A DNA stretch of 64,000 bases, from assembly GCF_040954645.1 (NCBI RefSeq), contig NC_092804.1:94924862-94988861 (forward strand), read 5' to 3'. A program made the position numbers and the translations under genes. The stretch comes from Diabrotica undecimpunctata (taxonomy: Eukaryota > Arthropoda > Insecta > Coleoptera > Chrysomelidae). Shown here one piece after another: positions 6,331 through 56,033 of this stretch (position 1 is its first letter; every line of letters begins with the position of its first letter). The notes under the pieces were generated by a model that was not told the origin of the DNA, did no database searches, and was given only the letters and a program-made list of their open reading frames with translations.

Positions 6331-7466
6331 AAAAATGGTTGACAGTCATCGTAGGTATAACCCTCTGCAGAATCCCATCAACTGCACTCTGAATGGGCCC
6401 ATATTGAGCAAAGGGTACATCTAAACCACATTTCATTGTTTTTGCCAAACTCACTGCAAACCAGGCATCTATCTTCGTCTGTATCGTCACTGATATCACA
6501 TGGTATATCGATATCCGATTCCGAAGAACTAGAATCAAACACCTTTATCTTGTAATGAGGTTTCTTAGTTTGTACTTGTTTTTCAGTCTTATTTGTATTT
6601 TCTCCTTTCTGAGATTTTTGGGTATTTAATTTAGTTTTTCTTTTTTCTTGAATTTTCTTTACCTTTTCCTGTTTTTTCTGTTCCTTTTCTTCTAACTCTT
6701 GTTTAAAAGGCGTAGATGTCAGGATTTTGGCATGCTGTTTTTTTCTGGTTATACTCTTTCTTACAGCGGAATTTGTAATAGACGTAAGTTCTTTAATTGA
6801 TGTGAAACTAGTAGAAGGTCCCGGAATAGGATCCATTGCTGTTGTGTCAACATGATTTTTATTTATAGGTGGCAAAGTTTGAGATGGGTTTGTATTAAAA
6901 ATTTCGGCTGATATGGCTTCATTGTTATCTTGGACTTCAACAAGCGATTGGTTTTGTAATGTAGCAGCTAAGAAATCTTGATTTGTAAATACTTTTGGGT
7001 TGAGTGGAAAAATGCCAGCGCATTTAAAGCAAGATTCTCCTTTACTTATGGTTGCTACTGTAGAATATGCTTTATTAAATAGACCAGCAACATCATATGG
7101 CGTGATATTTCGCATAAAATGTGTTTTAATAAACAAATTACATTCATTTCGATATTCAGCTTTAAGAGGCCCATAAAAAACTATATCCCAAGGTTGGATC
7201 TTGTGAGAAGAATGAGGTTGAATTGAAAGCATAGAAATATTATTTGCTTTGCAGTATTCATAAACTTTTATTGGTATGTGGCTGGAATGTTTATCTGTAA
7301 TTAGAAGAACTGGCGAGGTTTTACTGGGTTTTGAGTATTTGTGGAAGTGTTGTAACCATTCATAAAATAAACCTTCATCAATCCAACCATTATTTGAACA
7401 TTTATATAATGCCTCCGGAGGTCTATCTTTTTCTAAAAGAGGTCGCTTTCGCGGAAAAATAAACAT
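6331..7466 (-). pseudogene. Pogo/Tigger-like transposase, C-terminal two thirds with PHD finger
   Basis: The product is a cut-and-paste DDE transposase of the Tc1/mariner superfamily, pogo/Tigger branch (jerky-like). Visible in order are: the continuation of the catalytic core (LLITDKHSSHIPIKVYEYC, with the D of the second acidic position, then the HSSHKIQPWDIVFYGPLK block typical of the family), a lysine-rich coiled region, an acidic serine-rich patch, and a PHD-type finger (CLVC..., WFRCTLCSIWAHSEC). An in-frame TGA at about 6378 cuts the finger; the frame then goes on with WDSAEGYTYDDC, in which the first Cys of the last pair has become Tyr. The 5' part of the gene is at 8027-8120, beyond a LINE insertion. 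It is inactive as it stands. Family assignment is by motif only. Confidence 0.8.
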
Positions 7467-8015
7467 TCTTCTTCTTCTTCTACGGCACTACAGCCCAAAA
7501 TGAGCCTTGGCCTCCTTTATTTTTTGCCTCCACCCTTGTCTGTCTGTGGCTGCTCTTCTCCATACACGGACTCCTAAAAGTGCTTGTGCGTCGCTGCTTA
7601 CTGTGTCTTCCCAGCGCTTTCTTGGCTTTCCAACTGGTCTCTTTCCCTGCATTCTGGCGTTCAGTGCTCGTTTTGGTAGCCTATCCTCTCCCATTCGTAT
7701 CACATGTCCGGCCCATTGCAATCTTTGTATTCTAATGAAGTCTGACAGGGGTGTTTCCTTATACAGTTGATAGAGCTCGTTGTTATATCGAATTCTGAAG
7801 ATTCCGTTTTCCCTCACAGGTCCTAGTATTCTCCTCAGTACTTTTCTTTCGAATGTGTCGAGTTTGTTTTTGGATGTTTCTTTCAGGACCCATGCTTCGC
7901 TGCCATAACATGCTATTGGCCGAATTAAAGTTTTATAGATTCTCATCTTTGTATTTCGGTGGACACTTTTAGACCGAAATATATGGGAGAGGGCAAAATA
8001 AGCTTTGGAAAAGGG
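7467..8015 (-). mobile_element. LINE-C: 5'-truncated 3' end of a non-LTR retrotransposon
   Basis: The open frame (7488-8051, the first residues being pogo sequence read in another phase) shows the C-terminal region that follows reverse transcriptase in RTE-like elements: KMRIYKTLIRPIACYGSEAW, LDTFERKVLRRILGP, LQWAGHVIRM and a basic GKRPVGKPRKRWEDTV tail. The 3' end carries a short (AAG)n tail (TTCTTCTTCTTC on the plus strand, 7468-7480). It is flanked by AAAATAAACAT at 7456-7466 and 8016-8026, an 11-bp target-site duplication. Removing the insert joins the two transposase halves in frame (..IPP + MFIFPRKR..), so it inserted into the pogo gene. Confidence 0.85.
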
Positions 8016-9598: not shown

Positions 9599-9995
9599 AC
9601 TTTTTCCATTACAACAATTTTCAATATTGTGAATAATAAAGGTACTTTACTCTTAAGCGAAATTCATATTTTTTGACATACCTCGTATAAAATTAATACA
9701 ATTTTATATCTGATGGTTGAATCTTAGGTTTTAGACCACGCAGACCTTTTTGATAAAGAATAACTTTTTTGTAATAATAAAGTAGTTATCATATTTGTAA
9801 TAAATAAAAATGATGATTGGTATCACTAAGTTGGAAACAATTTGCAATTTATTTTTTCAATTAGAAGGATGTCATTGCATATTAAAATATAGTTTTTAAT
9901 TCCAAAGAACTTTTTTTAATACCAATTTTCGATATTGTAAAATATAAAGGTATTTTACCCTTCAGTGAAGTTCACATTTTTTACATAACTAGTGT
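9599..9995. repeat. Two diverged direct copies of an about 85-bp AT-rich block
   Basis: The block with TTTTCAATATTGTGAATAAT, AAAGGTACTTTACTCTTAAG and GAAATTCATATTTTTTGACA at 9599-9685 recurs at 9908-9995 with about 20% changes. No coding capacity. It is probably an internal repeat of a non-autonomous element. Confidence 0.65.
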
Positions 9996-10139
9996 ACTGT
10001 TTTTATTAATCTAATTTATTGTTTTTTTATTTATTATTAAAGGTTCTATTTATAACACTAACAAATTTATTAAAGTGTTTATTACTAATTTATTTTACAC
10101 CAATAATTATATAATTTTCTACATTTATTATAATACGTG

Positions 10140-10486
10140 CGTTACATTTTAAAAACTCGACGCGATGTTCAAAAACTAACTAACCGTTTTCAGCAGAGTT
10201 CCTTCTTTAAGTATAAAATGCCGTTAGTTCCGGAATCCCGGCGATGAATCGATGACCTTCCATCCAAAGCAGGTTTTTTTTATATCGGAGGGGGACCCAT
10301 ACGTCTAGAAACTCGTCGGCCTTTCTGACCCTTGGCGATAAGACTGGAAGGTCACGCCATACTGGTTTTTTACAGCGGCTTCTGCCGGCTGGGGTATGAT
10401 CTAGAAAATACTTGAATAGAAAAGATATTAGTAATAAATATGTTTACAGTTTTGAGTCATATGACACGTCATTATCTATCGTAACA
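10140..10486 (-). repeat. Probable 3' LTR of gypsy-1 (inner end defined, outer end not)
   Basis: On the minus strand a purine tract (AAGAGGGGGGAAA, plus positions 10487-10499) is followed at once by TGTTACGATAG, the expected order of polypurine tract then LTR start. Further in, a TATA-like ATTTTATACTTAAAG occurs near 10215. The outer end was not found; the LTR could extend towards 10000. No 5' copy exists in the window because the element is truncated. Confidence 0.6.
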
Positions 10487-11054
10487 TTTCCCCCCTCTTA
10501 AAAGATGGTTCCTCCTGGAACCTTGTCGGGACTGGAACTGGAACGGTATGCTGGTATCGGCAACTGGACCTTCTTTTACAACTTCCAGTTGTATAAAAAT
10601 GACAAGGGACGGTTTTCTCTCCGCACCAGTAACTATGCGGATTGCAACAGACTAACACCTGGACTTAGGTGCCTTTAAAGATGTCCTCCACCATACTTCG
10701 GATAACCCTCCAATCTAATTGGCGGCACTCTAACTTTGGCATGGTTAACTTTTGCACGTCGGACTCTAGTACGTGCTCTCTCAATTGAAGTAAGGCTTCC
10801 CATACGTCTCGGTAGGTAGGTTGCTCACGGGCAGTGTCTTTCGTTACCAGGTAGAAAAGGTAACGTAATGCATCTTGGAGTTTCAAGACTTTCCCGGGAG
10901 CTGGCACTTGGCATTGAAGTTCTGCAACTCGACCGAACTTTCTTCGAAATACGGATGCCAACCCTGGTGCGTCTTTGATACTGGCCGGGATGGTAAGGGC
11001 CAGCGAGTAGTCATCGGGGAGCGCGAGTAGATCTTGCTTTTCTTAAGTGGTAAC
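10476..11054 (-). pseudogene. Gypsy-1 accessory region: macrodomain-like (TARG1/OARD1-like) segment plus CCCH zinc finger
   Basis: Downstream of the integrase one frame runs from about 11042 to 10668. It reads like a small macrodomain of the OARD1/TARG1 type, whose members remove ADP-ribose from proteins or act on O-acetyl-ADP-ribose. Recognisable blocks in order are DLLALPDDYSLALTI, GLASVFRRKFGRVAEL, PGKVLKL, RYLFYLVTKD followed by QPTYRDVWEALLQL, LTMPKLEC, and LDWRVIRSMVEDIFKGT. One stop (10665-10667) interrupts it; the same frame then gives the next strand, VQVLVC, and a CCCH finger (CHFYTTGSCKRRSSCRYQH, spacing C-x7-C-x5-C-x3-H). It ends EMLR-stop inside the first LTR bases. The glycine-rich loops are eroded, and the Gly-Leu-Asp of the catalytic loop after MPKLEC appears lost, so this copy is probably inactive. 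It lies in a different phase from the integrase tail. The macrodomain call is from pattern recognition, the CCCH call from spacing. Confidence 0.6.
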
Positions 11055-11066
11055 ACCATGTCTTGC

Positions 11067-12560
11067 TTAATCGGTACCTCCATGGGCATCCATGAATTCC
11101 TCAAACGTGAGGTCAGACACATCTTGGACTTGGTTTACTTCCACTTCTTCATCTACGTCGTGGTCACCTTCGAAAGACGCCAGCCGGTTATGGTGTACTA
11201 TCATCGGCTTTCCCCTCGGAATCTTGCTTATTCGGTAGATGACATCGTTGATCTTCTCCATAATTAGGTATGGACCTTCCCAAAACTGCTGCATCTTGGG
11301 AGAATAACCTTTTCGCTTCTTGGGATTATAGAGCCAGACTTTGTCGTTCTTCTTAAGGCAACCCTTTTCGGCTTGTGTATCGTACCGTTTCTTCATTCGG
11401 TCGCTAGCGATCTGAAGATGGGAACGGACCAACTCATATACATGGCCCTTCTTCTTTGTAATTCAATCACATAATCTTCACCTGCTACATCTTCTCCAGG
11501 TCGACACCCAAACTCTAGATCACAAGGTAGTCCCATTTCGCGTCCGAATAGGACTCTGGCTGGTGTCTGGCCTGTTGATTCGTTAACAGCAGATCTGTAG
11601 GCCATTGTGAAGAACGGAAGACATTGGTCCCAGTCTCGCTGATGATAGGACACTATTTTTCTCAAATACTTGCCAACTGTCCTATTCATTCGTTCTACCA
11701 TACCATCCGATTGCGGATGATACCCGGTAGTTCTTGTTTTCTTCATGCCTAGTCTATCACATAGTCCTTGGAATAGATCGCTTTCGAAGTTCCTTCCTTG
11801 GTCACTGTGGATCTCCAAAGGTACTCCAAATCGGCTGATATATTCTTAGATCAACTTATCTGCAAAGGTGGCGGCCTTCTGGTCTGGAAGTGCGTAAATC
11901 TCGACCCCCTTAGTAAAGTAATCCATTACTACCAACATGTACTTGCCTCCATTTTCACTTTCTGGAAATGGCCCAGCAATGTCCAAAGCTATTCTTTCAA
12001 ACGGGCTTCCAACATTATATTGTCTCATAGGGGCTCTCCTTTTTCGATAAGGCCCGTTACTCGTAGCACAAATAGTACATTTCCTATACCAGTCTTTTAC
12101 ATCGTCGGAACTGTTCATCCAATAAAACCGTTCCCGAATTCGCTGAAGGGTCCTCTTTACACCAAAATGGCCTCCTGATGGACTGTCGTGTAACTGACGA
12201 AGTACTTCGGCTATTCTGCTCTTTGGGATCACCAACTGTATTCTCTTCTCTGAATCGTCATCATTTTCCAGGACTCGTTTGAGCAAGCCATCTTCCAGGA
12301 TAAATGAGTCCCACTGGGCCCAATACGTCTTAACTACTGAGCATAGGTTTGATATTTCTTGCCAAGGTGGTCGACGGTTTTCCTCTTTCCATTTTCGAAT
12401 TTTCTGTACAACTGAATCTCTCTCTTGTTCTTCCTTTATCTTGGTAGGCGTCCAGTCGTCGTTGACCATCGTTGTTCTTAGCACTGCTGCTTCCTTGGAT
12501 TCCGTTTTGTTGCAGTGGGAACACTCTGCTGGATATGGCCTTCTGGAAAGAGAATCAGCG
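11067..12560 (-). pseudogene. Gypsy-1 integrase (zinc finger, catalytic core, GPY/F module)
   Basis: Integrase of a Ty3/gypsy LTR retrotransposon, which inserts the cDNA into the genome. In order on the minus strand: the end of an RNase H/linker (SHRNADSLSRRP), the H-H-C-C zinc finger (HDSPSGGHFG ... CTICATS), the catalytic core with all three acidic residues (ALDIAGPF, HSDQGRNFES, GMVERMNRT), then the GPY/F-type module (FWEGPYLIMEKIND ... VHHNRLASFEGD). Damage: a stop inside the core at about 11843 between ADKLI and EYISRFGVPLE, and a frameshift near 11430. Its 3' side runs into the macrodomain/CCCH region. Confidence 0.88.
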
Positions 12561-13524
12561 TTTCTGTGACTCACTCGTGACGTAATAATTCCGCTCAGGT
12601 TTTGAAATAACTTTACTAAAATATCCCAGGACTCGTTCCTGTCCTCCTTGAATCTGAGATAGCACTCCTCCAATTCCCATATTACTTGCATCTGTATCTA
12701 AGGTGAACTCTCCTTCTGGCAGTGGATATCCTAAAATTGGTGCTGTGATTAAATGTTTTTTTAAGGTCTCAAAGGCATTTTAGCAGTCTGTATCTCAGCG
12801 GTAATCTCTTGCTTTCTCTGTAAGTCGCGTTAATGGCTTAGCGATATCTGCAAACTTCTTAATAAACCTCCGGTAGTAAGTACATATTCCAAGAAAACTT
12901 CTCACTTGATGTTTGTCTGTTGGTACTGGCCATTCCTTATTGGAATTGATTTTTCCCTTATCCACGGCCACTCCTTCTTTACTGACTATATGACCCAGAT
13001 AATTGACTTTACCTTGAAATAGCTGGCACTTCTTGGGGTTTAACATCAATCGGGCAGCTTTAACTCGATTAAAAACGTTTCCTAAATTCTTCAGATGATT
13101 TTCAAATGTCTGCCCTAAGACGATTATGCCATCTAGATAAACCAGGCATGTTTTCCAAGATAACCTTCTCAACACATTTTCAATAAGCCTTTCAAATGTC
13201 GCAGGACCATTACAGAGTCCAAATGGCATAACGTTGAATTGCCACAATCCAGATCCTGTGGTAAAGGCTGTCTTCTCTTTATCTACTGGGTCCATTTCTA
13301 CCTGCCAGTATCCAGACTTCAAATCCAAAGTAGAAAACAATTTACTTCCAGCGAATGTGTCCAATGTGTCGTCGATCCGAGGCAGAGGATAACTATCTTT
13401 CTTGGTAACGTTGTTCAGTAAAGGGTAATCCACACAGAACCTCGTCGTTCCGTCTTTCTTCTTAACCAGGACCACCAGAGAGACCCATGAGCTCGTAGAA
13501 GGTTCTATCACCCCGTCTTTCTTC

Positions 13525-13526
<2 letters not shown>
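12561..13526 (-). pseudogene. Gypsy-1 reverse transcriptase and partial RNase H
   Basis: Ty3/gypsy reverse transcriptase missing its N-terminus. Motifs: [70 protein letters not shown], and the active-site box YLDG, in which the second catalytic Asp of YLDD is Gly. RNase H starts (FTLDTDASNMGIGGVLSQ) but jumps from YYVTS straight to SHRNADSL, so most of its core is deleted. The frame begins exactly at the edge of a (TA)n array, so protease and Gag are missing. Confidence 0.88.

Positions 13527-13529
<3 letters not shown>

Positions 13530-13612
<83 letters not shown>
13530..13612. repeat. (TA)n microsatellite truncating gypsy-1
   Basis: About 83 bp of TA repeats directly adjoin the first RT codons of gypsy-1 on one side and a PLE terminal fragment on the other. 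Confidence 0.98.
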
Positions 13613-13613
<1 letters not shown>

Positions 13614-13855
13614 GTGTCTTAGTGTGTCTGTCCTATGCTTTTAATATTATTTTAATTGTGACGTTTATGTATACTTGTTAGCACCAAATTTTTACATGTT
13701 TGTCCATATTAATTCTTGAAAAAGGCATGGATTTCCTGCCGAAACGTCGAAAAAAAAATATAAAAATGTCTTAGTATCAAAACAAATTTTTTTATAAACC
13801 TAAGCCCAAGAAAATCTACTAAAAAATATATATTAAGGTTCAAGAACTAAACTCA

Positions 13856-18665: not shown

Positions 18666-20442
18666 TCATTTATTTCGTAAGATGAGAGAGTGGTAAACCT
18701 GGCTCAAATTGTCGATGTCGGTTCTTTTGTTTATTGCCGATGAGTTCTTGAGGATCTCACACATTTCAATAAAGGAGCGTTTCTGATGGTTGTTTTGTTT
18801 CGCCAGTATTTTGGTATTTGTGAAATCAATGTGATGTTTAGTGGAAATGGCGTGTTGTGCAAGGGCACAAGAGGGTTTGAAAAGTCTGATGTCACTTTTG
18901 TGTGAAGTTATACGCCCTAGAAGAGATCGACTAGTCTGGCCAATGTAGCAGGAGTTACATTCTGAACAGATTATCTGATAGACAACATTAGTGTGCTCTA
19001 ACGAGCTTAGTGGAGTTTTAGACTTGGAGAATAACTTTCCAATGGTTTTAGTATTTTTTAGGGATATTTTGACGGGTAAGTTTTTGAATAGTTTAGTAAG
19101 CTTGTTCATAATTTGTGGGAAATAGGGAAGAGAAGCATATTTTGTGGCTGGTTTTGGGGTTAACGGGGAAATGTTCGTCTGTATGCTATTGGATATGGAG
19201 GCTAGTATTGCACCGTTAGGTGCTTCCGAAATAGAATGACCATAGCTTTTAGAGAAAAGATATCTGTTGATGATGGATATGGGGTAAGAGTTATCAATGA
19301 GAATGGATTTGAGTAAATCCAAAGATTCCCTCTTGTACCGCGTATGGGTCAGCGTGTGTACTCTAAAGCTAAGAGCTTGTACAAGGTTATGTTTGTATCT
19401 TATTGGGTGTGTAGAGTGGTAATTTAAGAACCGGTTGCTCGCCATGTCTTTCCTGTACCACGTAGTGCCCAATGTGTTACTATGTGTGCGTATGATTCGC
19501 ATATCCAAAAACGGTATGCTGTTATCAACCTCCAATTCACAAGTAAATTGCAGGTGAGGATCAACGCTATTGAAGACTGATAAGGTGCTTAAAATCTAAT
19601 CAGGTGGTGTTGCTAGGATCAAGTCGTCGACATAACGCTTTACAAAGGGAACCTGGAAATCTAACTTACTGATACTCTCATTGATAAGGTCATCTAGTAC
19701 GAAATTAACTAGAATGGGGGAAATGGACGATCCCATGGGAGTTCCAAAGATTTGGCGATAATATTTGTCATTAAATATTAGATAATTGGTGTCAAACGTC
19801 AGTTTTAATAATTCCGAGAATATTTCCCATGATACTGGACTGTGTGGTTGGATTTCATTCCAATGGTTCCGGAGTGACGTGACGACGCTGGAGAGTGGGA
19901 GGTTAGAAAACAGTGATACTACGTCGAAGCTTACTAAGACATATTCTCTTGGTAACTGATAATTATTGATAAATTCACTGAACTGGAAAGAGTCTACTAT
20001 GTTAAACTCGTTCTTATTTATTGGGAGCGTTTATTGACGATAGTATAGGACGCATACTCAGTTGGGGCTTATGGATTTTAGGAAGACAATAGAACCTGGG
20101 GGCGTTGCGCATACTCAGTTGGGGCTTATGGATTTTAGGAAGACAATAGAACCTGGGGGCGTTGCCATTATAGTTATGGAGGGATTTGGCTAGTTTATCA
20201 TCGATGATTTTTTTATTTTTTAGTTCAGTGATGAATTTATTTATTTTATTTGTGTAAGTTGAGGTGGGATTGCGGAGAAGTGGCTGATAATATTTATTAT
20301 CATCTAGAAGTTGTTGGCTCAGGTTTAAGTACTGCTCTCTCATCATTAGTACTGTTGCATTGCCTTTGTCACTGGTTAATACCATCAGGTCAGGGTGTTC
20401 TTTAAGGAATGTGGTGGTTTGTCTATAGACATCATCTATATC
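18666..20442 (-). pseudogene. PLE-A left copy: reverse transcriptase plus GIY-YIG endonuclease
   Basis: Penelope-like elements code for a telomerase-related RT joined to a GIY-YIG nuclease. On the minus strand, from 20442: linker (FLKEHPDLMVLTSDKGNATV), YYQPLLRNPTSTYTNKIN, a finger block (APRFYCLPKIHKPQLSMR, present twice because of a 57-bp duplication), then FDVVSLFSNLP, GTPMGSSISPILVNF, RYVDDLIL. A TAG (plus 19596-19598) follows. GIY-YIG: CSECNSCYIGQTSRSLLGRI, then SALAQHAISTKHHIDF-like and KRSFIEMCEILKN. The 5' part of the gene is missing. About 50 bp is also missing after the NAPN block relative to the right copy. Confidence 0.9.
20052..20165. repeat. 57-bp tandem duplication inside PLE-A left copy
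   Basis: Two adjacent 57-bp units (20052-20108 and 20109-20165) begin GCATACTCAGTTGGGGC. The length keeps frame, so the encoded RT segment is doubled. The right copy has one unit. Confidence 0.93.
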
Positions 20443-25245: not shown

Positions 25246-27645
25246 CTAGCTATCAATGTCCGACTCTATCTCTAGATTAAAATTAGGGCAATTGGATGAA
25301 AATGTGGAGAGTGGGATGTCGGCTTGGGAAGTCGACGGTACATTGTTGTGCCGATTACTAACTAATACAGGTACTTCCTGTTCGTTAGTCTGAGTTTGTG
25401 GATTCCCTGAACGACATAGTCGTGCAACAGGACGGTACTTCCATAACGTGAGTATCCCAATTATTACCATTATAGTAATGGTCCCGGTGGCCACAAAATA
25501 ATGCCAATTAGATTCGTGAATCGATCGCCACTGCGTATGCGTCATTTCTTGTTCTTGTTCCAGACTCTCCTCCTCAAGTAACACACGACGTAGCTCTCCT
25601 CCTGGTATGTCAAGGTAGGTGTTTAGAGGCGTGTTAAACCTGCGGGGTGTCCTCGCCACCAGTTGGGCCACGGGAGTGATTGGCGACTTCAGGTAACTCG
25701 TCACTGCTCTGTCCACCCCACTGCTAGTGGGGAGTAATATAATATTTTTCGTTTGGGCGATACATTTGGGTGAAAGCTTCAGGAATGTGACTCGTTCCAG
25801 TACTCTTTCGCTCCGATTTCCATCGCAAATAATGGATATGTGTATCGTGACTGGCGTGATAACTAGCCAGAGGTTGGGAGTACCCATCTTACTCCATTGG
25901 GCTGTCTGTATTGTCCTGGCTACCAGTGGACATGTGCTATTCTTAGATCGCTCATAAATTTCTTCACGTATGCAGTTTGGTTGGGTATCCGTGTTTCTTA
26001 TAGCCGTTGGTGAGCACGCTATCTGCGCCTTTGTCAACAGTAAGCACCTTTCTCTATCTTCCGCGGTCAATTCGAAGTAGTGCAGTGTGTTATAATCTAC
26101 GACCAGTAGATTCCTTGGGGCGACAAATGTGCGCACCACCGACCCCTCAACGTTAAGTGGTATGGCCGTGACTTCGAGCATGCTGTACCTATTTTTCCCT
26201 GTCACTATGAAGTAGCCGATGACTGTTATATATCTGTCGTCATGACTGACTTCTGTTTCTATAATGGGTTGTCGTCGTATTCCGACCCCTTGAGGCAGTA
26301 TCTGCCCTGCTTTCCCTATTAATTTGGTTATTTCACCCGGTTTCACTATATCAATGAAGTGTCCGTGGTTATAGTGAAGGTTTAATATTCCCTCGTAAAA
26401 TTGAGTATATTCGTTTATGAAGTCCATAACTTGTAATGCTATCGTTTGTATTCGTAACGTGCTATATTCGGTTTCTAGTCTTTGTGCTTTGTCTTCTACT
26501 TCGTTAAGTCCTTTAGATATTTCTTGTAGACCTGTGATTAGTGCTTTGTTAAACTTGTTCATTTGCTCGTTTATCCTGTTCTCTGTGTGATTGATTGATG
26601 TTATTGTTTCTAACATTATCTTCGCCTGGTGCTGTGATCCCTTTATTAGCTCCTTTTGGTTACTATCTAATGCTTCAATGTTACTGTAGGCTTCGTCATT
26701 GACTCCAAATACTGAGGTTAATATTGTTCCTAATATTCCTCTTCTTTCCCTTCCTTTTATTTTTACTGTCAACCCCTCGCTTACTGACTTCGCCTTTCTT
26801 TGTCCTTCCTCTAACTTCCCTATTATATCCTTACAATTCACGATTTTTATCTCCTGACACAGTTCTCGTACGCCTTGTATCATATTTCCTATTAGTTGGT
26901 GCTCTTTTCGAATTCTTCCTTTTTCGAGTAACACCTTTATTCGAAATGTTCCCCGGTCTATGACGACCTCTCCAAGGTCTTCTGTGAAAAATCCTGGTAC
27001 CGGATTATATATTTTATACGGTTCTGCCTTTATGGGTTTTAACATCGTTAAAAACATTATAGCTACTAGTATTTTCTTCCATCTTAGTGCTGCTGCCTTC
27101 TTCGGCTTTTCCTGTTTCTCTTCTTCCAGTCGTATTAGCTTATGTATGGGTCTTTTAGTCAGTTTCCCTTTTGCCTTTCTCACTGTTACTACTCTGGTTA
27201 ATCCCTCCGCTCCAGGGTGTGTTTCTGTTACCCTCGCTAATGGCCATCTGCCTGGAGGTGTATCCTCTTCTTTAATTATAACTATTTCTTCTTCTTTTAT
27301 GTTAGGGTGCGCCTTATGCCATCTATTTCTCTGTTGTAATTGGTGCAGGTATTCCTGTTTCCAAATTTTCCAGAAGTCTCTTTTTATTTTCTCCAATAAT
27401 CTCCACCTCGTCGGCATCTTCAAATAATTCGTAAGCTCTACTTCCCGATTTGGTGATATAATTTCTCTCCCTATAAGGAAGTGAGCTGGTATCAGGGCTA
27501 TTTTCCCTTCAGGGTCTTCTGATGACCCACATAATGGTCTCGAGTTCATACATGCTTCTATTTGTGTCAGCACCGTACTCAATTCTTCATATGTTAGAAC
27601 TATTTCCCCGATGATTCTTTTCAAGTGATATTTCATTATTCGCAC
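25246..27645 (-). CDS. BEL integrase C-terminus followed in frame by F-type envelope-like protein
   Basis: A 799-codon frame without stops. Residues 1 to about 180 are the end of the BEL integrase (YHLKRIIGE, IEACMNSRPL, PAHFLIG, then GRWPLARVTETHPG and VRKAKGKLTKRPIHKLI). From about residue 192 there is a hydrophobic signal-like segment (ILVAIMFLTMLKP), then an ectodomain with a furin-like basic site at residues 299-302 (RERR) directly followed by a fusion-peptide-like segment (GILGTILTSVFGV) and a helical, coiled-coil-like stretch. Near residues 714-735 lies one membrane span (FVATGTITIMVIIGILTLW), with a roughly 64-residue cytoplasmic tail. This layout is that of the class I F-like envelope of errantiviruses and baculoviruses. 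How env is expressed (splicing or other) is not visible. This is the best preserved gene of the element. Confidence 0.75.
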   Translation of the reverse strand: MRIMKYHLKRIIGEIVLTYEELSTVLTQIEACMNSRPLCGSSEDPEGKIALIPAHFLIGREIISPNREVELTNYLKMPTRWRLLEKIKRDFWKIWKQEYLHQLQQRNRWHKAHPNIKEEEIVIIKEEDTPPGRWPLARVTETHPGAEGLTRVVTVRKAKGKLTKRPIHKLIRLEEEKQEKPKKAAALRWKKILVAIMFLTMLKPIKAEPYKIYNPVPGFFTEDLGEVVIDRGTFRIKVLLEKGRIRKEHQLIGNMIQGVRELCQEIKIVNCKDIIGKLEEGQRKAKSVSEGLTVKIKGRERRGILGTILTSVFGVNDEAYSNIEALDSNQKELIKGSQHQAKIMLETITSINHTENRINEQMNKFNKALITGLQEISKGLNEVEDKAQRLETEYSTLRIQTIALQVMDFINEYTQFYEGILNLHYNHGHFIDIVKPGEITKLIGKAGQILPQGVGIRRQPIIETEVSHDDRYITVIGYFIVTGKNRYSMLEVTAIPLNVEGSVVRTFVAPRNLLVVDYNTLHYFELTAEDRERCLLLTKAQIACSPTAIRNTDTQPNCIREEIYERSKNSTCPLVARTIQTAQWSKMGTPNLWLVITPVTIHISIICDGNRSERVLERVTFLKLSPKCIAQTKNIILLPTSSGVDRAVTSYLKSPITPVAQLVARTPRRFNTPLNTYLDIPGGELRRVLLEEESLEQEQEMTHTQWRSIHESNWHYFVATGTITIMVIIGILTLWKYRPVARLCRSGNPQTQTNEQEVPVLVSNRHNNVPSTSQADIPLSTFSSNCPNFNLEIESDIDS

Positions 27646-28060
27646 TGCGCTCTCCCATAATCCTCCGAAATGTGTTGCATATGCAGGTATGACATGCCAC
27701 TGGGTACCTAGTGCCAGTAATCCTTGTTTTATCTCGTCATCTATTTTTTATTTTCTTTTTTCAACAAATTTGCTGTTCCTACGAATGTGGTTCCGTTATC
27801 GCTGTATACGTTGTTGCACTGTCCTCTGCGTGCCGTAAATCTCTTGAACGCCGCGATGAATGCATCCGTAGACATATCGCTTACTACCTCAAGGTGTACT
27901 GCCTTCGTTGACAGACACACAAATACTGAGATGTAGCCCTTATAGCTCCTCTATCCTCTGCCTCTCGTGGTACTTATTTTTATTGGACCGGCATAATCTA
28001 TCCCTGTGTTAGTAAAGGGGTGACTCGGGTTCACTCTGTCTTTCGGTAGATCCCCCATTC
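27646..28060 (-). pseudogene. BEL integrase catalytic core
   Basis: The D,D,E core in two or three phases: NTGIDYAGPIKIST (first Asp), a stop, then YKGYISVFVCLSTKAVHLEV, YSDNGTTFVGTANLL (second Asp), and AYATHFGGLWESAVR (Glu) leading into the 27645 frame. The catalytic residues are present; a stop and frameshifts break the chain. Confidence 0.8.
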
Positions 28061-30703
28061 ATTGTTGTGCTGCTTGGCTTTTATACCTCCTGCCCCTTAA
28101 ACATTTTGCTAGATGATCTTTCACGGTTCTTCTGCCGTTGATTATCCAGTATTTCCTTTTTATGTACTGTAGTGTTTGTTGTAATCCGCTATTTAGATTA
28201 CTTGCGTGACTATCTGCTATAAGTAACTTTGTTAATGCACTATCCTTTGGCAAAATTATCGGATGTTTTTCTCCGTACTTTAGATTCGTGTGTCTCAGTC
28301 TTCCGGTGACTCTTAGAATTCCTTGTCTATCCAGGAATGGTACCAATGACGCTAATTTATTTTTCTTGTCTAATTGCTGTTTCTTCTCCAGCTTATTTAT
28401 TTCTTGTTTGAAGTAGGCGTGCTGTGTGTGCTTTATCACCTTTAATAGCGTTTCCTCTAATTCTTGGACTGTAAGCTGACTTTGTCCATTGTCCTTCTTT
28501 TTTCTGCATTTGTCTGCAAATCTCCTACAGTATGAAAGTACTCTTCTCATTCTTTCTAAATTTGAGAATCTCTCGCATATGTCCTCCTTTATCGTTGTCG
28601 TGTGCACCGTTATTTTCGTTTTGACTTCCTCCTCATTTGTCTCTGGTATTTCTTCTGATTCCTGCGTTAAAGTTTTGTTACTAGTCAGCCAAGTTGGTCC
28701 CTTCCACCATAGCTCTGCTTCTAATAATTCTGATGGGGTACTTCCACGTGAGAGGATGTCCGCTGGATTTTCCTTTGTATCTACCTTATGCCAATTTTTC
28801 GGTCCTATAACTCCTCTTATTTCCTCTACTCTGTTGGCGACGAACATTTTGCACCTTTTTGATGATCCCCTTATCCAAGCCAGGGTTATCGTTGAGTCCG
28901 ACCATGCATATACCTCAATGTTTTCCCTGTTCAATGCTTGTATTGTTTTCTTCATTAAATTTGCTAGTAGTACCGCGGCACACAGCCCGAGCCTCGGTAA
29001 CGTCGTTTTCCCTTTCAATGGTGCGACTTTCGATTTTGCTATCATTAGATTCGTTTTGATTTCTGGGCCTAATACCCTTGAGTAGATTACCGCTCCATAT
29101 CCTTTCATAGACGCATCTGCAAATCCACGTAGTTCTACTCTGTTTATCTTGCTTAAATTGTTCCACCTGGGCAATGTTATTTTCTCCAGATTTACTAATT
29201 GCGCCTGGTATGTATTCCACCTGCTTTGTTGGTTGCTAGTTAATTCTTTATCCCAACTGGTCTTTTGCTCCCATAATTCCTGTATGAACATTTTCGCCTG
29301 AATTACTACAGGTGCTATCCATCCCAGTGGGTCGTATAGTTTTGCTACTTCTGACAGTACGTGTCTTTTCGTTATTTTCTTTGCCGTCGTTATCCCTATT
29401 TTGAATGTGATTATATCCTCTTTAGGGGACCAGTGTATTCCTAACGTTTTCCGTACTTCTTCTTGTTTGAATGCCTTGGAGTCTACGTTCCTCATATCCT
29501 CAGGTACGTTCTCCATTATTTTTTCTTCGTTGCTCAACCATTTTCTAAGAATGAAACCTCCTTTTCTGAACAGTTGTATTAATTCCTTTTGGTCTGTTTC
29601 TGCTTCCTGCACTGTCTCAGCTCCTCCTAGTATATCGTCTACATACATGTTTTCTTTTACAATTTTCGATGCCAACGGGAACCTCGCTCCTTCGTCTTCT
29701 TGTAATTGTTGTATTGTTCTTAACTCACCTTCGTTAAGTTATACTCTTGTATGGGGTCCTTTGTGTCCTTTCTCCACAAATTTTTTTGATATTTTTGGTC
29801 TTCTTCTGCCATTCTGATTTGTCTAAACATTTTTTCCAGATCCACTGAGTATGCTATCTTATTGGATCTCCATCGTAATAGTATATTTGTCAAATCTTGT
29901 TGTAATTTCGGCCCTTTGTGCATAATATCATTCAGGCTTACCGCCGATGAGCTTTTGCTTGATGCATCAAACACGGCTCTTATTTTCGTTGTAGTACTGT
30001 CCTCTTTTCTCACTGGATGATGAGGTAAGTAGTACCCATCTCCCTGGTTTTCTTCTATTACCATATGACCTTGGTTTTCATAATCTTCCATGAATTGTCT
30101 GTAATTCGCTTCTAACTGTTTGTCTTTTGCAAACTTCCTTTCTAGTTGCATCAATCTGGCGAATGCTTGCTGTTTAGATTCTCCTAACTTTGCGACGTCT
30201 TCCCTAAACGGAATTTTTACTTCGTATCTCCCTTCTTCATTCCTTTTTACAGTCTGTCGATACAGTTCTTCACATTCTTGTTCTTCCACTGAGAAACTTG
30301 TGTCCTGATTTACTTCTTCTAATTCCCAGAAGTTCTTTATTTGTACGTCCATTTCTTGTCTTGATATCATACAGCATACTTCTGCTTTTATATTCTCCCT
30401 TTCTCGTGCTATTCCCGAAACTATCCATCCTAGTTTGGTGTTTTGACTCAGGAGTCCATTACTTATTCTGTGCATCCCTTCTGTCAATATGTAACTGTAT
30501 TCTTTTACTCCTAGTAGTAAGTCTATCTTCCCTACCTTGTAATATCTTGGATCTGCCAGTATTGCATTTTTCTCGTTATAGTCCGGTAGAATTATATCCT
30601 GTTCCGGTAAATTCCTTGTTATCTTCGGTAGTACTAGTGCTTCTATTTCCATCTCGAAGTCACTTTCGTAATATATATATACAAGGATTTCCACAGTTTT
30701 CAC
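28059..30703 (-). pseudogene. BEL reverse transcriptase, RNase H and integrase zinc finger
   Basis: BEL-type pol. Upstream frame 29720-30703: end of protease/linker (LVLPKITRNLP, YYKVGKIDLLLG), then RT (YYLPHHPVRKED, KIRAVFDASSKS, LNDIMHKGPKLQQDL, YSVDLEKMFRQIRM). Downstream frame 28059-29675: YVDDILGG active site, RKTLGIHWSPKED, VAKLYDPLGWIAPV, RNase H (GFADASMKGYGAVIYSRV, YAWSDSTITLAWI, ENPADILSRG), and the integrase finger (HASNLNSGLQQTLQYIKRKY ... CLRGRRY). Between the frames (about 29690-29720) the conserved block before the QQL helix is missing and the phase shifts. Confidence 0.88.
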
Positions 30704-30772
30704 TGTATTCCTTCACTCAACCGTTTTCTCCAATTTTTCCTGTTTAGCCAGTCCCCTTCCTACTTTCGTAAT
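30662..30772. repeat. 89-bp insertion in BEL pol flanked by 11-bp direct repeats
   Basis: ACTTTCGTAAT occurs at 30662-30672 and 30762-30772. The protein homology of the Gag-protease frame (..ETHYES) and of the next frame (..YYESDFEME) overlaps at exactly these copies, so the 89 bp between plus one 11-bp copy was added, shifting the frame (100 bp). Confidence 0.75.
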
Positions 30773-32624
30773 GAGTTTCGATTAAAAGTTTCATACTCCA
30801 GTTGGCTGTTTTTTCTCCTAACGAGCCTATCCCGGATATGGTCGCCTGTATGGGCTTCCTTGTTGTTCCTAGCGTCGTCGCAGCTTGTTCCGTTATAAAT
30901 GCGCATTGTGACCCTTGGTCGATTAGTGCTCTCATTATGTGTGAATCTCCTTTCGCATCTCTTATGCGTACCACAGCTGTCGCTAGTAATGCTTCACCTT
31001 CCTTATGGCTTGCACAGTTTACTGAATTCTGCCCTCTTTGTTGGTCGTTGCTATTCCTATACCCATTGGTATCTTGTGTATTTTCTCGCCTTCCGTTATT
31101 TTGTTCTCTGGCGTTGTATGAATTATTATTTCCTCCTCTGTACCTATCAGCTTGGTACCCGTTTCTTCTATTGTTCGAATCTCTTCCATTTCTTTCTTGT
31201 GTTTGTTCTCCTTTCGTTTCATTGGAGTTTCTTTTGTTGCTTGTGTTTCCTTTTTCATAATGCAACATATGGTGGTGGTCTCCGCCACAGTGTCTGCACC
31301 TATATTGTGAATAACAGTGTTTTTCTTTTTTATGTGCTAGGCAGTTTGTACAAAATCCTTTTTCTTTTATCATCCTGTTCCGGTCTCTTACATTGAGTTC
31401 CTGAAATTCTCTGCAGTTCGGTACTCCGTGAGCTCCGTTGCATATCACGCAACGTGTTCTTGGTTTCCTAAGAGATCCTCCTTGCTTCCCTTGTCTTTTT
31501 TCTGACTCCAGCAGTTCCAGTGTCTGAAATCTTCGCTGTAAGAATGTTTGTGTCGATTTGTACGTCGGTATCTCTCTACTGTCTCCAATGAGGTTTTCGT
31601 ACAGCCTCCTAGTTTCATTGTCCCATTTCGTTATGATAATTCGGGCTATCAATGGGCTCCACGCTTCCGTGTCTGTTCCTAACCCTCCTATGGCTTCCAG
31701 ACTTTCGTGGAAGGTGTCATGTAGTGATTTCAATGCTCTAGCAGAAGATTCCTTTACTTCCTGCGCTAGTAGCATCCTGTCTATTAATTTAAACAATATC
31801 ATCCTTGGGTTCTCATACCTATCTTTTAGCATGTTCCAGGCCACTTCGTAGTTAGCCTCGGATATGTTTAAGTGTTGTATCATTCTGTTGGCTTCCCCTC
31901 TTACTTGAGTTTTTAGGTACTGCATTTTTTCTGCGTTTGATAACTGGTCGTTTTCATGTATTACTTTAGTAAACAGATCGTGGAAAGTTCTCCACGTTTC
32001 ATATCTGCCTTCATACACAGGGATTTTTACCTGCGGTAATGTCACACCGTCCCTCCTCTGTGTGCTTTCTGGCCGTTGCATTCCTGGCCTTATTTTCTTC
32101 AAAACTTCCCTGACTTTCCTCTTTAGATGATTTATTCTCTCTACTTCTCCATTATCTGTAGCGTCTAGTTCCTCATTTACTGCTGCTTCAATCATTAGTG
32201 TATTCACCTTTTCCATGTATTCTCTTAACTCTGACTGCAATTCTTCATCCTCCTGCAAGTCTTGTTCATTTTCTGGCCGTAATAATTCCTCGATTCTTTG
32301 TTTTCTTATCTGTATCTCCTTTACTTTCGGTGCTTTTCCTCTTTTCAGCACCCTTACATATTCTTCCAACAGGGTTTTCCCCTCAATGTATGTCTTAAAT
32401 ACCTGATCATAGTATTTTGTTTCAAAATATTTTTCTTTCGTTATACCCCCTTCTAGCAGCTTTTCGTGGTTATTCAAAAAATTTGCCCAATATTCTTCTA
32501 ATTTTTCCTGTCTATCCCGGATGTATTGTTGATTTCTCCGAGATTGGGAATCCTTTTTTGTATTGGAAACGAGTTTCGCTATTTTTGCTCCTATTTCCGC
32601 TTGCTTAACGTATACACTTTCCAT
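30744..32624 (-). CDS. BEL Gag and aspartic protease N-terminal part
   Basis: A 626-codon frame. Charged coiled-coil N-terminus (EKLEEYWANFLNNHEKLL), then a BEL Gag core (VKIPVYEGRYETWRTFHDLF, AEKMQYLKTQVRGEANRMI, AWNMLKDRYENPRMI), a double zinc-knuckle region at about residues 390-450 (CVICNGAHGVPNC, CTNCLAHKKEKHC, CRHCGGDHHHMLH), an Asn/Gly/Arg-rich linker, then the protease flap entry (ALIDQGSQCAFITE) with the catalytic Asp. The frame ends early because a 100-bp insertion (30673-30772) breaks it before the rest of the protease. The start Met at 32624 follows a short leader. Confidence 0.85.
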   Translation of the reverse strand: MESVYVKQAEIGAKIAKLVSNTKKDSQSRRNQQYIRDRQEKLEEYWANFLNNHEKLLEGGITKEKYFETKYYDQVFKTYIEGKTLLEEYVRVLKRGKAPKVKEIQIRKQRIEELLRPENEQDLQEDEELQSELREYMEKVNTLMIEAAVNEELDATDNGEVERINHLKRKVREVLKKIRPGMQRPESTQRRDGVTLPQVKIPVYEGRYETWRTFHDLFTKVIHENDQLSNAEKMQYLKTQVRGEANRMIQHLNISEANYEVAWNMLKDRYENPRMILFKLIDRMLLAQEVKESSARALKSLHDTFHESLEAIGGLGTDTEAWSPLIARIIITKWDNETRRLYENLIGDSREIPTYKSTQTFLQRRFQTLELLESEKRQGKQGGSLRKPRTRCVICNGAHGVPNCREFQELNVRDRNRMIKEKGFCTNCLAHKKEKHCYSQYRCRHCGGDHHHMLHYEKGNTSNKRNSNETKGEQTQERNGRDSNNRRNGYQADRYRGGNNNSYNAREQNNGRRENTQDTNGYRNSNDQQRGQNSVNCASHKEGEALLATAVVRIRDAKGDSHIMRALIDQGSQCAFITEQAATTLGTTRKPIQATISGIGSLGEKTANWSMKLLIETHYESRKGTG

Positions 32625-32670
32625 GATTATTTTTATAAATTTTTACATTCAGCGGTAAATATATTCTTCT

Positions 32671-53427: not shown

Positions 53428-54518
53428 TTATTTTTGAACAAAGTCTTTAAGGTAAGCAGGTGTGTTTCTTTCCCTGGTACCTCTTCTAATAAGACTGTCT
53501 TTATTTTCTTTCTTTAAAACACTTTCAATATTACCTTGATCTTCCAGAACGTTAACAGGAGAATTATTTGGATTTTCCTCACATATACTCAATCTAGGGC
53601 TTGGTGGATCTTTGATAAACTGTTCATTAGAAACCGCAGATTCCGATCCACTAACACACTCCAGTAGAGATGCATCTCCTCGTGGTGCAAGTTGTCTTAA
53701 GACTACTGTTGTTTCTTTACCATCTTCACGTCTAACAACAGCATAGTTTGGATTTGCTTCAATTAGCTGTACTTCTTCAACGAGGGGTTCATATTTGGAC
53801 TGCCTCACATTTTTTTTTTCATAAATACTTTTCCGGGGGTTATCAACCATGAAGGAAGCGCAGCTCCATTTATAGCTTTTCTAGAATGATGAAACATTCG
53901 CTCATGAGGGGTACTGTTTGTAGATGTACACAAAAGAGAACGAATTGAATGAAGAGCTATCTCAACTACTTCTTCCCACTGTTCAGTTTTTAAATGTTTA
54001 GATTTTAAAGCAAGAGAAATAGTTTTCCATATAATTCCATTATATCTTTCTGTCTGGCCATTGCCTTCAGGATTGTAAGATGTTGTTCGGCTTGTAGGTA
54101 TTCCTTGTGAATGGGGAAATGTTTTGACTTCTTGGGACATAAATGCCCCCCCTTGATCTGAATGGCTTGACATGGATATACAAAGGGGAATCGAGAATAT
54201 TCGTCAACAATTGTTAGGATATATTTGTTATGAGATCTAGATGGAAGCGGTCCTTTAAAATCCAGAGACAATCTTTCAAAAGGCGAAGTAGCTTTAATTA
54301 ATCTCCCCTTGAGTTTTTAAAAACTTTGGTTTTATTTCTGCACAGATAGGACAGCGATTGGTCATTTCACGGACTTCATCAATAGTATATGGTAAGTTAC
54401 GTGTCTTTATCCAATGGACCATTCTGGTGATTCCTGGATGACACAAGGATTGATGTAGTTCAAATAGACTTGGTCGAGGATTTATTGAACAGCTCACTCG
54501 TGAGAAAGTATCTGGCAC
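53428..54518 (-). pseudogene. Gypsy-2 integrase
   Basis: H2C2 finger (SLFELHQSLCHPGITRMVHW, NRCPICAEIKPKF), catalytic core (SLDFKGPLPSRS first Asp, HSDQGGAFMS second Asp, PEGNGQTERYNGIIWKTI Glu), then a C-terminal region (VQLIEANPNYAVVRREDGKE, NTPAYLKDFVQK). Four overlapping frames show at least three frameshifts. No macrodomain or CCCH sequence follows, unlike gypsy-1. Confidence 0.88.
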
Positions 54519-56014
54519 TACATTCTCAACTCCTGGTCGGTACTGAATATCGAAACTGTAGCATGATAATTCAAGGCGCCATCTGATAATCTTCTCATTT
54601 TTTTTATCTTACTAGTGTGGTGCATATTGAACATAAAAGAGACAGACTTTTGATCAGTTATAAGTCGAAAATGTTTACCTATCAAGAAATGTCTCCATTT
54701 TATAAGAGCTTCCACTATTGCATAAGCCTCTTTTTCCACTGATGAATGATTTCTTTCACTTTTTGATAAGGTTCTTGAAAAGAAAGCAACAGGTCTTCCT
54801 CCTTGGCTAAGAGAAGCAGCAATACAAAAATCTGAAGCATCAGATTCAACGATAAAAGGAATCTTGTCATCAATCGTAGTAACGGCTGAAGAAATAATTT
54901 CAGATTTAAGAATTTGGAAAGCTTCAGCTGCTTGTTCTGTTAAAGGAAAAGTATTGCATGTGACTAGTTTTTGTATCTTTTCTGAAAATTGTGGGATACA
55001 TTTGGAATAATGTGCAAACATTCCGACAGCTCTCTTTAGTGATTGTGAATCGTTTGGTAAGGGTAACTTCTTTAATGGTTCAAGTCTTTCAGGATCAGGT
55101 TTTAAGGTCTGATTTTCTATTTGATAACCCAAAAGTTTGATTGAATTCAGTGTATAAGAACTTTTATTTTGATTTATTGTTAGATTGTATTTCTTCGCTA
55201 CTTCCATAAATTTATTAAGATTTTCATTATGTTGTTGTTGATTTAATCCACAAACCGTAATGTCATCAAGATATGCATATACACCTTTTAAATGTTCGGA
55301 TTTAATAATACCATCGATAACCCTTTGAAAACAAGCCACTCCGTTGGTTACCCCAAAAGGAATCCGGCAAAATTGGTATAGTTGGCCGTTGGCTTCAAAA
55401 GCAGTGTATATTTTCTCTTCATTTTTGATTGGAATTTCATGGTATGCATTTTTAAGATCAATAGTACTGAAGACAGAATATCTTGCTACTTTTCTAACAA
55501 TATCTTCAACATCTGGGAGAGGATAGGCATCTAAGTAAGTAAATTTATTAATCGTTTGTGAATAATCTACCACCATTCGCTTTTTGTGTGTTTCACTTTT
55601 TGTAATAAGTACTTGTGCACGCCAAAGAGAGTTGCTTTCTTCTATGATTCCATTCAATAGCAGATACTGTATCTCGTCAGATATGAATTTTCTATCTTCA
55701 GTTGAAAATTTTCTTGATTTAGTTGCCCTCGGTTTGCAATCATTTGATAGATTGGATAATAATTTGGGTGGCTCTATATTTAAGTATGCCAAACTACAAA
55801 TGTTATCTATACGATCAATAACTAAAGGCATTTTTGAGCCAGCAAAAGTGATTTCTAGAGAAGAATGTTGTTTAAGCAAGTCATGACCTATAACTACATC
55901 AGCACATAAATCTTGAATTATTGATAATTTGACATTTTTATAGGAATGTTCGTTTATTTCTAAATTAACAAAGCAGTGTCCTGAGATAGTCGTTCTGAGT
56001 GCTGTTGAAGCCAT
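54518..56014 (-). CDS. Gypsy-2 protease end, reverse transcriptase and RNase H
   Basis: A 498-codon open frame. Protease C-terminal part (DVVIGHDLLKQHSSLEI), RT with FSTEDRKFISDEIQYLLLNG, KRMVVDYSQTINKFTYLDAY, FSTIDLKNAYHEIPI, IPFGVTNGVACFQRVID, YAYLDDITVCG (intact YLDD), the connection, then RNase H (PFIVESDASDFCIAASLSQG, EKEAYAIVEALIKWRHFLIG, FRLITDQKSVSFMF). An indel in an A-run at about 54600 shifts the last residues, so the linker to integrase continues in another frame. The main enzyme domains look intact. Confidence 0.88.
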   Translation of the reverse strand: MASTALRTTISGHCFVNLEINEHSYKNVKLSIIQDLCADVVIGHDLLKQHSSLEITFAGSKMPLVIDRIDNICSLAYLNIEPPKLLSNLSNDCKPRATKSRKFSTEDRKFISDEIQYLLLNGIIEESNSLWRAQVLITKSETHKKRMVVDYSQTINKFTYLDAYPLPDVEDIVRKVARYSVFSTIDLKNAYHEIPIKNEEKIYTAFEANGQLYQFCRIPFGVTNGVACFQRVIDGIIKSEHLKGVYAYLDDITVCGLNQQQHNENLNKFMEVAKKYNLTINQNKSSYTLNSIKLLGYQIENQTLKPDPERLEPLKKLPLPNDSQSLKRAVGMFAHYSKCIPQFSEKIQKLVTCNTFPLTEQAAEAFQILKSEIISSAVTTIDDKIPFIVESDASDFCIAASLSQGGRPVAFFSRTLSKSERNHSSVEKEAYAIVEALIKWRHFLIGKHFRLITDQKSVSFMFNMHHTSKIKKMRRLSDGALNYHATVSIFSTDQELRM

Positions 56015-56033
56015 TATTATGCTTGCATGACTT

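What the first reader, a model, noticed from the sequence alone, without database searches (positions are those of the whole stretch)
10476..11054. Ty3/gypsy element carrying a TARG1-like macrodomain and a CCCH zinc finger after its integrase
Seen: between the integrase GPY/F module and the 3' polypurine tract, one frame (broken by a single stop) contains blocks that I recognise as the OARD1/TARG1 macrodomain order (DLLALPDD, GLASVFRRKFGRVAEL, RYLFYLVTKD, PTYRDVWEALLQL, LTMPKLEC, LDWRVIRSMVEDIF), then a C-x7-C-x5-C-x3-H finger ending at the LTR. Known: macrodomains of animal RNA viruses reverse host ADP-ribosylation, and CCCH fingers bind RNA in antiviral PARP-family proteins. Inference: the element may have captured a gene that helps it against an ADP-ribosylation-based defence, or that modifies its own Gag or RNA. 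I know of no described gypsy lineage with this pair.
Basis: partly seen in the sequence, partly recalled or inferred. Interest (0 to 1): 0.88.

Follow-up and report, generated by a model that had tools for sequence, protein, structure and literature searches.

The report
Retrotransposon polyprotein with TARG1-like tail
A broken copy of a jumping gene of a type found in beetles carries, at the end of its replication polyprotein, a domain descended from an ADP-ribose-removing enzyme plus a zinc finger of an RNA-binding type; a relative with one unbroken frame exists, but key active-site residues of the enzyme are gone, so it looks like a re-used binding module rather than a working enzyme.

Summary
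Window 10668-11042 (-) encodes a domain homologous to TARG1/OARD1 (E 1.8e-20), and 10548-10604 (-) a CCCH finger (Pfam E 2e-4), between a Ty3/gypsy integrase tail and a 3' LTR. It is a family trait, not a chance insertion: two Diabrotica predicted proteins (72 and 82% identity) and a 1339-aa natural polyprotein, P0121, carry it. P0121 reads protease-like, RT, RNase H, integrase, macrodomain, CCCH in one unbroken frame. The window copy is a dead, 5'-truncated fragment.
TARG1's Lys84 is kept in 4 of 4 element sequences, but the loop with Asp125 is two residues shorter and has lost Gly121, Gly123 and Asp125 in the 3 of 3 that reach it; the first loop is degraded too, the scaffold much less. TARG1-type hydrolysis is therefore unlikely. 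I favour a binding or tethering module at the integrase C-terminus, where chromoviruses carry a chromodomain. Macrodomains in retroelements have a precedent (fish retroviruses, cited in PMC4977317); a TARG1-type domain in Ty3/gypsy Pol did not appear in the listings.

The parts
10668..11042 (-). TARG1/OARD1-like macrodomain with degenerate ADP-ribose loops, 125 codons, ended by a stop at 10665-10667
10647..10664 (-). counterpart (VQVLVC) of the last macrodomain strand, downstream of the stop; P0121 reads GVQILVC here with no stop
10548..10604 (-). CCCH zinc finger C-x7-C-x5-C-x3-H; nearest solved structures are CPSF4/CPSF30 fingers
   Evidence: PF00642 E 2e-4
11067..11462 (-). integrase C-terminal part: GPY/F module (Integrase_p58_C) and acidic tail, ended by a stop at 11067-11069
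   Evidence: PF22938 E 1.1e-13; 72% identical to P0121 residues 1043-1164
11393..11845 (-). integrase core, second part
   Evidence: PF00665 E 2.3e-4, 21.8 bits, below its cut-off of 32.6 in this piece; 83% identical to P0121 over 132 residues
11846..12697 (-). linker, integrase H2C2 zinc domain and start of the core
   Evidence: PF17921 E 2.3e-20; 78.5% identical to P0121 665-906
12555..12779 (-). incomplete RNase H
   Evidence: PF17919 E 2.6e-20, profile positions 7-75 of 100
12795..13529 (-). reverse transcriptase, nothing of the element before it
   Evidence: PF00078 E 4.4e-33 in frame 12795-13640; P0121 283-600 matches window 13529-12576 at 84%
13530..13611 (+). (AT)n tract at the 5' truncation point of the element
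10487..10499 (-). polypurine tract next to the 3' LTR
   Evidence: read
10481..10486 (-). first bases of the 3' LTR (TGTTAC); its far end is not defined because no second LTR was found
   Evidence: the stretch 9950-10490 matched only itself in the window

Best explanation
Anatomy (about 0.95 sure): the window holds a decayed 3' fragment of a Ty3/gypsy retrotransposon family whose Pol polyprotein continues, in one reading frame after the integrase GPY/F module, into a TARG1-derived macrodomain and then a single CCCH finger. History (inferred): an ancestor of this family acquired a TARG1-type domain; the loop that carries TARG1's Asp125 was shortened by two residues and both ADP-ribose loops lost most of their conserved residues before the sampled copies diverged; the scaffold was then kept by selection. 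Mechanism (inferred, about 0.4 sure): the domain no longer works by TARG1's Lys/Asp hydrolysis. It acts as a binding module at the end of integrase or as a released Pol fragment: the macrodomain holds a nuclear or chromatin partner and so steers the integration complex, and the finger binds RNA or DNA, possibly the element's own RNA. Shown: domain identity, order, one frame in a natural relative, change of the catalytic loop. Not shown: ligand, partner, processing, effect on integration.
For: Homology to TARG1 in three of three sequences tested (window 1.8e-20; P0001 9.7e-15; P0121 6.5e-20 over residues 1163-1305). P0121 also matches Ty3 Gag-Pol over 249-1117 at 2.1e-127 and PF00642 at 1317-1339: one natural 1339-aa protein joins the parts. 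P0001 aligns with P0121 from residue 1144, in the integrase tail, to 1297, with no stop. Loops: Met40 and Gly41 kept in 0 of 4, Gly121 in 0 of 3 (Glu in all), Gly123 and Leu124 missing in 3 of 3, position 125 R, R, N; Lys84 and Asp20 kept in 4 of 4. Of columns with one residue in at least 112 of 118 OARD1-like proteins, all three long element sequences keep 1 of 14 in the two loops and 23 of 42 elsewhere (Fisher p 0.0018). Selection: window-P0121 differences have a higher mean BLOSUM62 score than 999 of 1000 neutral simulations, and 22 of 1000 simulations had no stop. Position: chromoviruses carry a chromodomain at the C-terminus of integrase (PMC3605345, passages).
Against: Four element sequences only, one of them (P0002) ending before the second loop. 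The exact places of the missing residues depend on the alignment; searches agree on two fewer residues there. The selection test is weaker by another measure (share of positive-scoring changes: 33 of 1000 simulations reach the P0121 value), weaker for P0001 (34 and 66 of 1000; no stop in 60 of 1000) and not significant for P0002 (122 and 120 of 1000; no stop in 225). With the four element sequences alone AlphaFold gave a poor model (pLDDT 48.7); the good one (89.3) had 62 OARD1-like rows in its alignment and leans to that fold. Nothing ties the domain to chromatin beyond position and family habits. DarG, with the lysine but not the aspartate, is an active hydrolase (PMC7050489, passages), so activity is not excluded. 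P0121 comes from one unnamed 5313-base contig and ends at the finger's last histidine, so its true end may be cut.
Confidence: 0.45

Rival explanations
1. The domain is still an ADP-ribosyl hydrolase, with a changed mechanism like DarG or SCO6735, and removes ADP-ribose from element RNA ends, cDNA ends or Pol, protecting the element from a host PARP-type defence.
For: Lys84 kept in 4 of 4. DarG keeps only the lysine, and SCO6735 has neither dyad residue, yet both are active (PMC7050489, PMC9411070, passages). The NCBIfam DarG model matches the window weakly, E 5.1e-5, 22.7 bits against a cut-off of 250. TARG1 can remove ADP-ribose from nucleic acid ends (PMC7050489, passages).
Against: The phosphate loop (RIGCGLD in OARD1; RIGCGLAGG as printed for SCO6735, PMC5087735, passages) reads KLEC or RIEC and is two residues shorter in 3 of 3; the first loop is degraded too.
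Confidence: 0.2
2. A structural passenger: the domain only serves as a folded C-terminal extension of Pol (stability, spacing or polyprotein processing), with no ligand.
For: Scaffold kept better than the pocket; the macrodomain (64.5%) and finger region (59%) are less alike between window and P0121 than the integrase pieces (72 to 83%).
Against: The finger's metal ligands are kept in both window and P0121, which suggests nucleic-acid binding; Lys84 and Asp20 are kept in 4 of 4.
Confidence: 0.25
3. Chance: a cellular OARD1 pseudogene landed next to the integrase of this copy only.
For: The window copy has three stops between integrase tail and finger.
Against: Three other sequences have the domain, and two of them (P0001, P0121) carry the same integrase tail in frame before it.
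Confidence: 0.02

Closest known systems
TARG1/OARD1 (C6orf130), ALC1-like macrodomain class
   Same: 36-37% identity, whole-domain alignment, same predicted fold, Lys84 and Asp20 kept
   Different: Asp125 and the glycine-rich second loop lost, first loop degraded; fused to Pol; followed by a CCCH finger
DarG antitoxin macrodomain
   Different: Bacterial antitoxin; 18-23% identical to the model for the three single-domain DarG chains listed, 15% for a DarTG chain
[quoted passage not shown] 2009, cited in PMC4977317)
   Same: Retroelements that carry a macrodomain (one sentence)
   Different: Described as additional open reading frames of retroviruses; the macrodomain class is unknown to me, as the original paper is not held
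Chromoviruses (chromodomain at the integrase C-terminus)
   Same: Extra domain after the GPY/F module in Pol (PMC3605345, passages)
   Different: No chromodomain was listed for P0121; the added domain is a macrodomain plus finger
Orchid Gypsy elements with an AlkB-like m6A demethylase (PMC9289625)
   Same: Ty3/gypsy elements that took up a nucleic-acid modification enzyme
   Different: Separate open reading frame with in vitro activity (abstract)
CPSF4/CPSF30 CCCH fingers
   Same: Best solved matches of the finger (6fuw_C, E 1.4e-5 summed over fingers, best single finger 0.081; 2rhk_C 7.6e-5, best single finger 0.0011)
   Different: One finger, not several; P0121 lacks the GEKTV lead-in that window and CPSF4 share

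Membership tests
Ty3/gypsy LTR retrotransposon | RT and RNase H upstream of integrase, similar to Ty3 | tested here: met
   Window order RT, RNase H, H2C2, core; P0121 matches Ty3 Gag-Pol 2.1e-127
Ty3/gypsy LTR retrotransposon | GPY/F-type integrase C-terminal module | tested here: met
   PF22938 E 1.1e-13; WEGPYLI read (that this is GPY/F is recalled)
Ty3/gypsy LTR retrotransposon | two LTRs with target-site duplication | tested here: inconclusive
   3' LTR start and polypurine tract present; 5' part of the element missing; no second LTR in the window
TARG1/OARD1 (ALC1-like) macrodomain | sequence homology over the whole domain | tested here: met
TARG1/OARD1 (ALC1-like) macrodomain | macrodomain fold | tested here: met
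   the model used OARD1-like rows, and without them it was poor
TARG1 hydrolase | catalytic Lys84 | tested here: met
   4 of 4
TARG1 hydrolase | catalytic Asp125 | tested here: not met
   R, R, N in the three sequences that reach it
TARG1 hydrolase | glycine-rich phosphate loop GCGL | tested here: not met
   EC with two residues missing, 3 of 3
TARG1 hydrolase | ADP-ribosyl ester hydrolysis | not testable with these tools
   needs an assay
CCCH zinc finger | C-x7/8-C-x5-C-x3-H above the curated cut-off | tested here: met
   window 21.6 bits, P0121 22.6 bits, cut-off 20.5
Chromovirus | chromodomain after integrase | tested here: not met
   no chromodomain among the 17 Pfam families listed for P0121 at E up to 1
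Fish retroviruses with macro domain | common origin of the macrodomain | not tested
   sequences and original paper not at hand

The most novel reading that the evidence does not exclude
A Ty3/gypsy lineage has turned an ADP-ribose eraser into a reader fused to integrase. With Lys84 kept and Asp125 lost, the domain would hold ADP-ribose tightly or even covalently, as a review reports for TARG1 mutated at residue 125 (PMC7050489, passages, which prints Glu125), and so tether the integration complex to PARP-marked chromatin or DNA breaks, as a chromodomain does with methylated histones.
Probability: 0.12. Interest if true: 0.85.

Novelty: new variant of a known kind. Interest (0 to 1): 0.62.

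Why it matters
Domains that retrotransposons keep after integrase can show which host system they meet. A TARG1-derived domain kept after losing its catalytic loop would link ADP-ribosylation, or a re-used macrodomain surface, to retrotransposon integration or RNA handling. It also warns annotators: two Diabrotica proteins named 'ADP-ribose glycohydrolase OARD1-like' are probably pieces of this kind of element.

Tried and rejected
Chance insertion was rejected. Relatives were sought in viral contigs twice and in prokaryote genome contigs once: patterns matched 35, 73 and 105 stretches and none encoded a relative by tblastn. The donor could not be placed: of 940 matches to a profile that included human OARD1 only the best 120 are listed, 2 of them the Diabrotica proteins, the named rest vertebrates apart from one coral and one mussel, some unnamed, so the closest insect OARD1 is unknown. 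dN/dS was not possible, because DNA was at hand only for the dead window copy; a neutral simulation stood in (AT-rich equilibrium, transitions weighted 3, parameters of my choice; the window copy's own decay works against finding selection). AlphaFold with element sequences alone failed. The CPSF likeness of the finger is only a lead. Papers: ten searches were answered. Those joining macrodomain, macro domain, OARD1 or TARG1 with retroelement words listed 0, 1, 3, 2, 1 and 1 papers; of these I opened only PMC4977317 (passages) and saw the rest as listings. Most subscription papers are not held, so absence from print is not shown.

Full report
WHAT IS THERE. On the minus strand, window 13529-10476 holds, in order, the remains of reverse transcriptase, RNase H, integrase zinc domain, integrase core, GPY/F module and an acidic tail (Pfam), then a 125-codon frame (10668-11042) and a 62-codon frame (10479-10664), a polypurine tract and an LTR start at 10486; the last codons overlap the LTR start. 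The last three frames (integrase tail, 125 codons, 62 codons) lie in one reading phase, interrupted by stops at 11067-11069, 11043-11045 and 10665-10667. The 5' part is lost at an (AT)n tract (13530-13611); similarity to a relative ends at 13529.

THE FINGER IS REAL. PF00642 scores 21.6 bits, cut-off 20.5. The best solved matches are CPSF4/CPSF30 fingers: 6fuw_C at 1.4e-5 summed over several fingers, best single finger 0.081; 2rhk_C 7.6e-5, best single finger 0.0011. The PARP12 finger model is far weaker (E 0.099).

IT IS A FAMILY. The 125 residues find 2 proteins at E up to 1e-3 among 12 candidates, both Diabrotica virgifera predictions named OARD1-like. P0001 begins in the integrase tail and passes into the macrodomain with no stop: it aligns with P0121 1144-1297. 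A search for longer proteins, scoring only the macrodomain, found 1 protein at E up to 0.01 among 193 candidates: P0121, 1339 residues, from an unnamed contig of 5313 bases. P0121 has a protease-like stretch (PF13975, 25.2 bits, under its cut-off of 28.2) and RT, RNase H, H2C2, integrase core, p58_C and CCCH domains above theirs; it matches Ty3 Gag-Pol at 2.1e-127 and TARG1 at 6.5e-20 over residues 1163-1305. Identity to the window is 78.5% and 83% in two integrase pieces, 72% in the tail, 64.5% in the macrodomain and 59% in the finger region. So the arrangement integrase-macrodomain-finger in one unbroken frame exists in nature. P0121 ends at the finger's last histidine, so its end may be cut.

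THE POCKET IS DAMAGED, THE SCAFFOLD LESS SO. Aligned with 118 OARD1-like proteins, the element sequences keep Asp20 and Lys84 in 4 of 4. TARG1's Gly121 is Glu in 3 of 3 that reach it, Gly123 and Leu124 are missing in 3 of 3, and position 125 is R, R and N; P0002 ends earlier. Where exactly the two missing residues fall depends on the alignment; searches agree that there are two. Met40 and Gly41 are kept in 0 of 4; Gly43 in 3 of 4. Among columns conserved in at least 112 of 118 OARD1-like proteins, the three long element sequences all keep 1 of 14 in the two loops and 23 of 42 elsewhere (p 0.0018; at 106 of 118, 1 of 15 and 23 of 48, p 0.005). The loop borders (35-45, 119-126) were my choice, the second guided by PMC5087735 (passages). 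Because the change is shared by the window, P0001 and P0121, it is most simply ancestral.

SELECTION. Simulated neutral decay of the window frame to the same identity gave a lower mean BLOSUM62 score of the differences than seen for P0121 in 999 of 1000 runs, and 22 of 1000 runs had no stop; by the share of positive-scoring changes 33 of 1000 runs reached the observed value. For P0001 34 and 66 of 1000 runs reached the observed values and 60 had no stop; for P0002 122, 120 and 225, not significant. This supports, but does not prove, purifying selection on the domain.

MECHANISM. In TARG1, Lys84 attacks the distal ribose and residue 125 resolves the intermediate; a mutant of residue 125 accumulates a covalent intermediate; DarG has only the lysine and SCO6735 neither residue, and both are active (PMC7050489 and PMC9411070, passages; the review prints Glu125, the others Asp125). 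So loss of Asp125 alone would not end activity, but the loss of the glycine loop with it makes ordinary hydrolysis unlikely (inference). The position after the GPY/F module is where chromoviruses have a chromodomain (PMC3605345, passages). I therefore favour a binding or tethering role at the integrase end of Pol, with the finger as a nucleic-acid contact. This step is inference.

KNOWN OR NEW. Extra domains in LTR retroelements are known: AlkB in orchid Gypsy (PMC9289625, abstract and one section), DEDDy exonuclease and GDSL esterase in bdelloid elements (PMC5408684, passages), and macro domain proteins in fish retroviruses (one sentence in PMC4977317, citing Basta et al. 2009, which is not held). 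The listings showed no TARG1-type domain in a Ty3/gypsy Pol. I rate it a new variant of a known kind.

LIMITS. The host of the window and of P0121 is unknown; the window's own genome could not be searched (tool unanswered at the 13 calls listed in Tried and rejected). Copy number, processing and expression are unknown.

Noticed in passing
window 25246-32642 (-): A BEL/Pao-type element (DUF1759, Peptidase_A17, H2C2, DUF5641); the 833-aa frame 25246-27747 runs 626 residues past its DUF5641 match with no further Pfam hit at E up to 0.001, perhaps an env-like or other extra domain.
   Followed up: no
window 53892-56041 (-): A second, more distant Ty3/gypsy element: 28% identical to P0121 over RT/RNase H, 33% in part of integrase.
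   Followed up: partly
window 18666-20030 (-): Reverse transcriptase followed by a GIY-YIG domain, the layout of Penelope-like elements (the label is recalled).
   Followed up: no
window 6378-7487 (-): DDE_1 (pogo/Tigger-like, label recalled) transposase fragment.
   Followed up: no
whole window: 16 AT dinucleotide tracts of 12 or more repeats, one of them exactly at the truncation point of the gypsy element.
   Followed up: partly
P0001, P0002 (Diabrotica virgifera predictions): Public gene predictions named ADP-ribose glycohydrolase OARD1-like match the element, and P0001 begins in its integrase tail, so they are probably misannotated retrotransposon pieces.
   Followed up: yes
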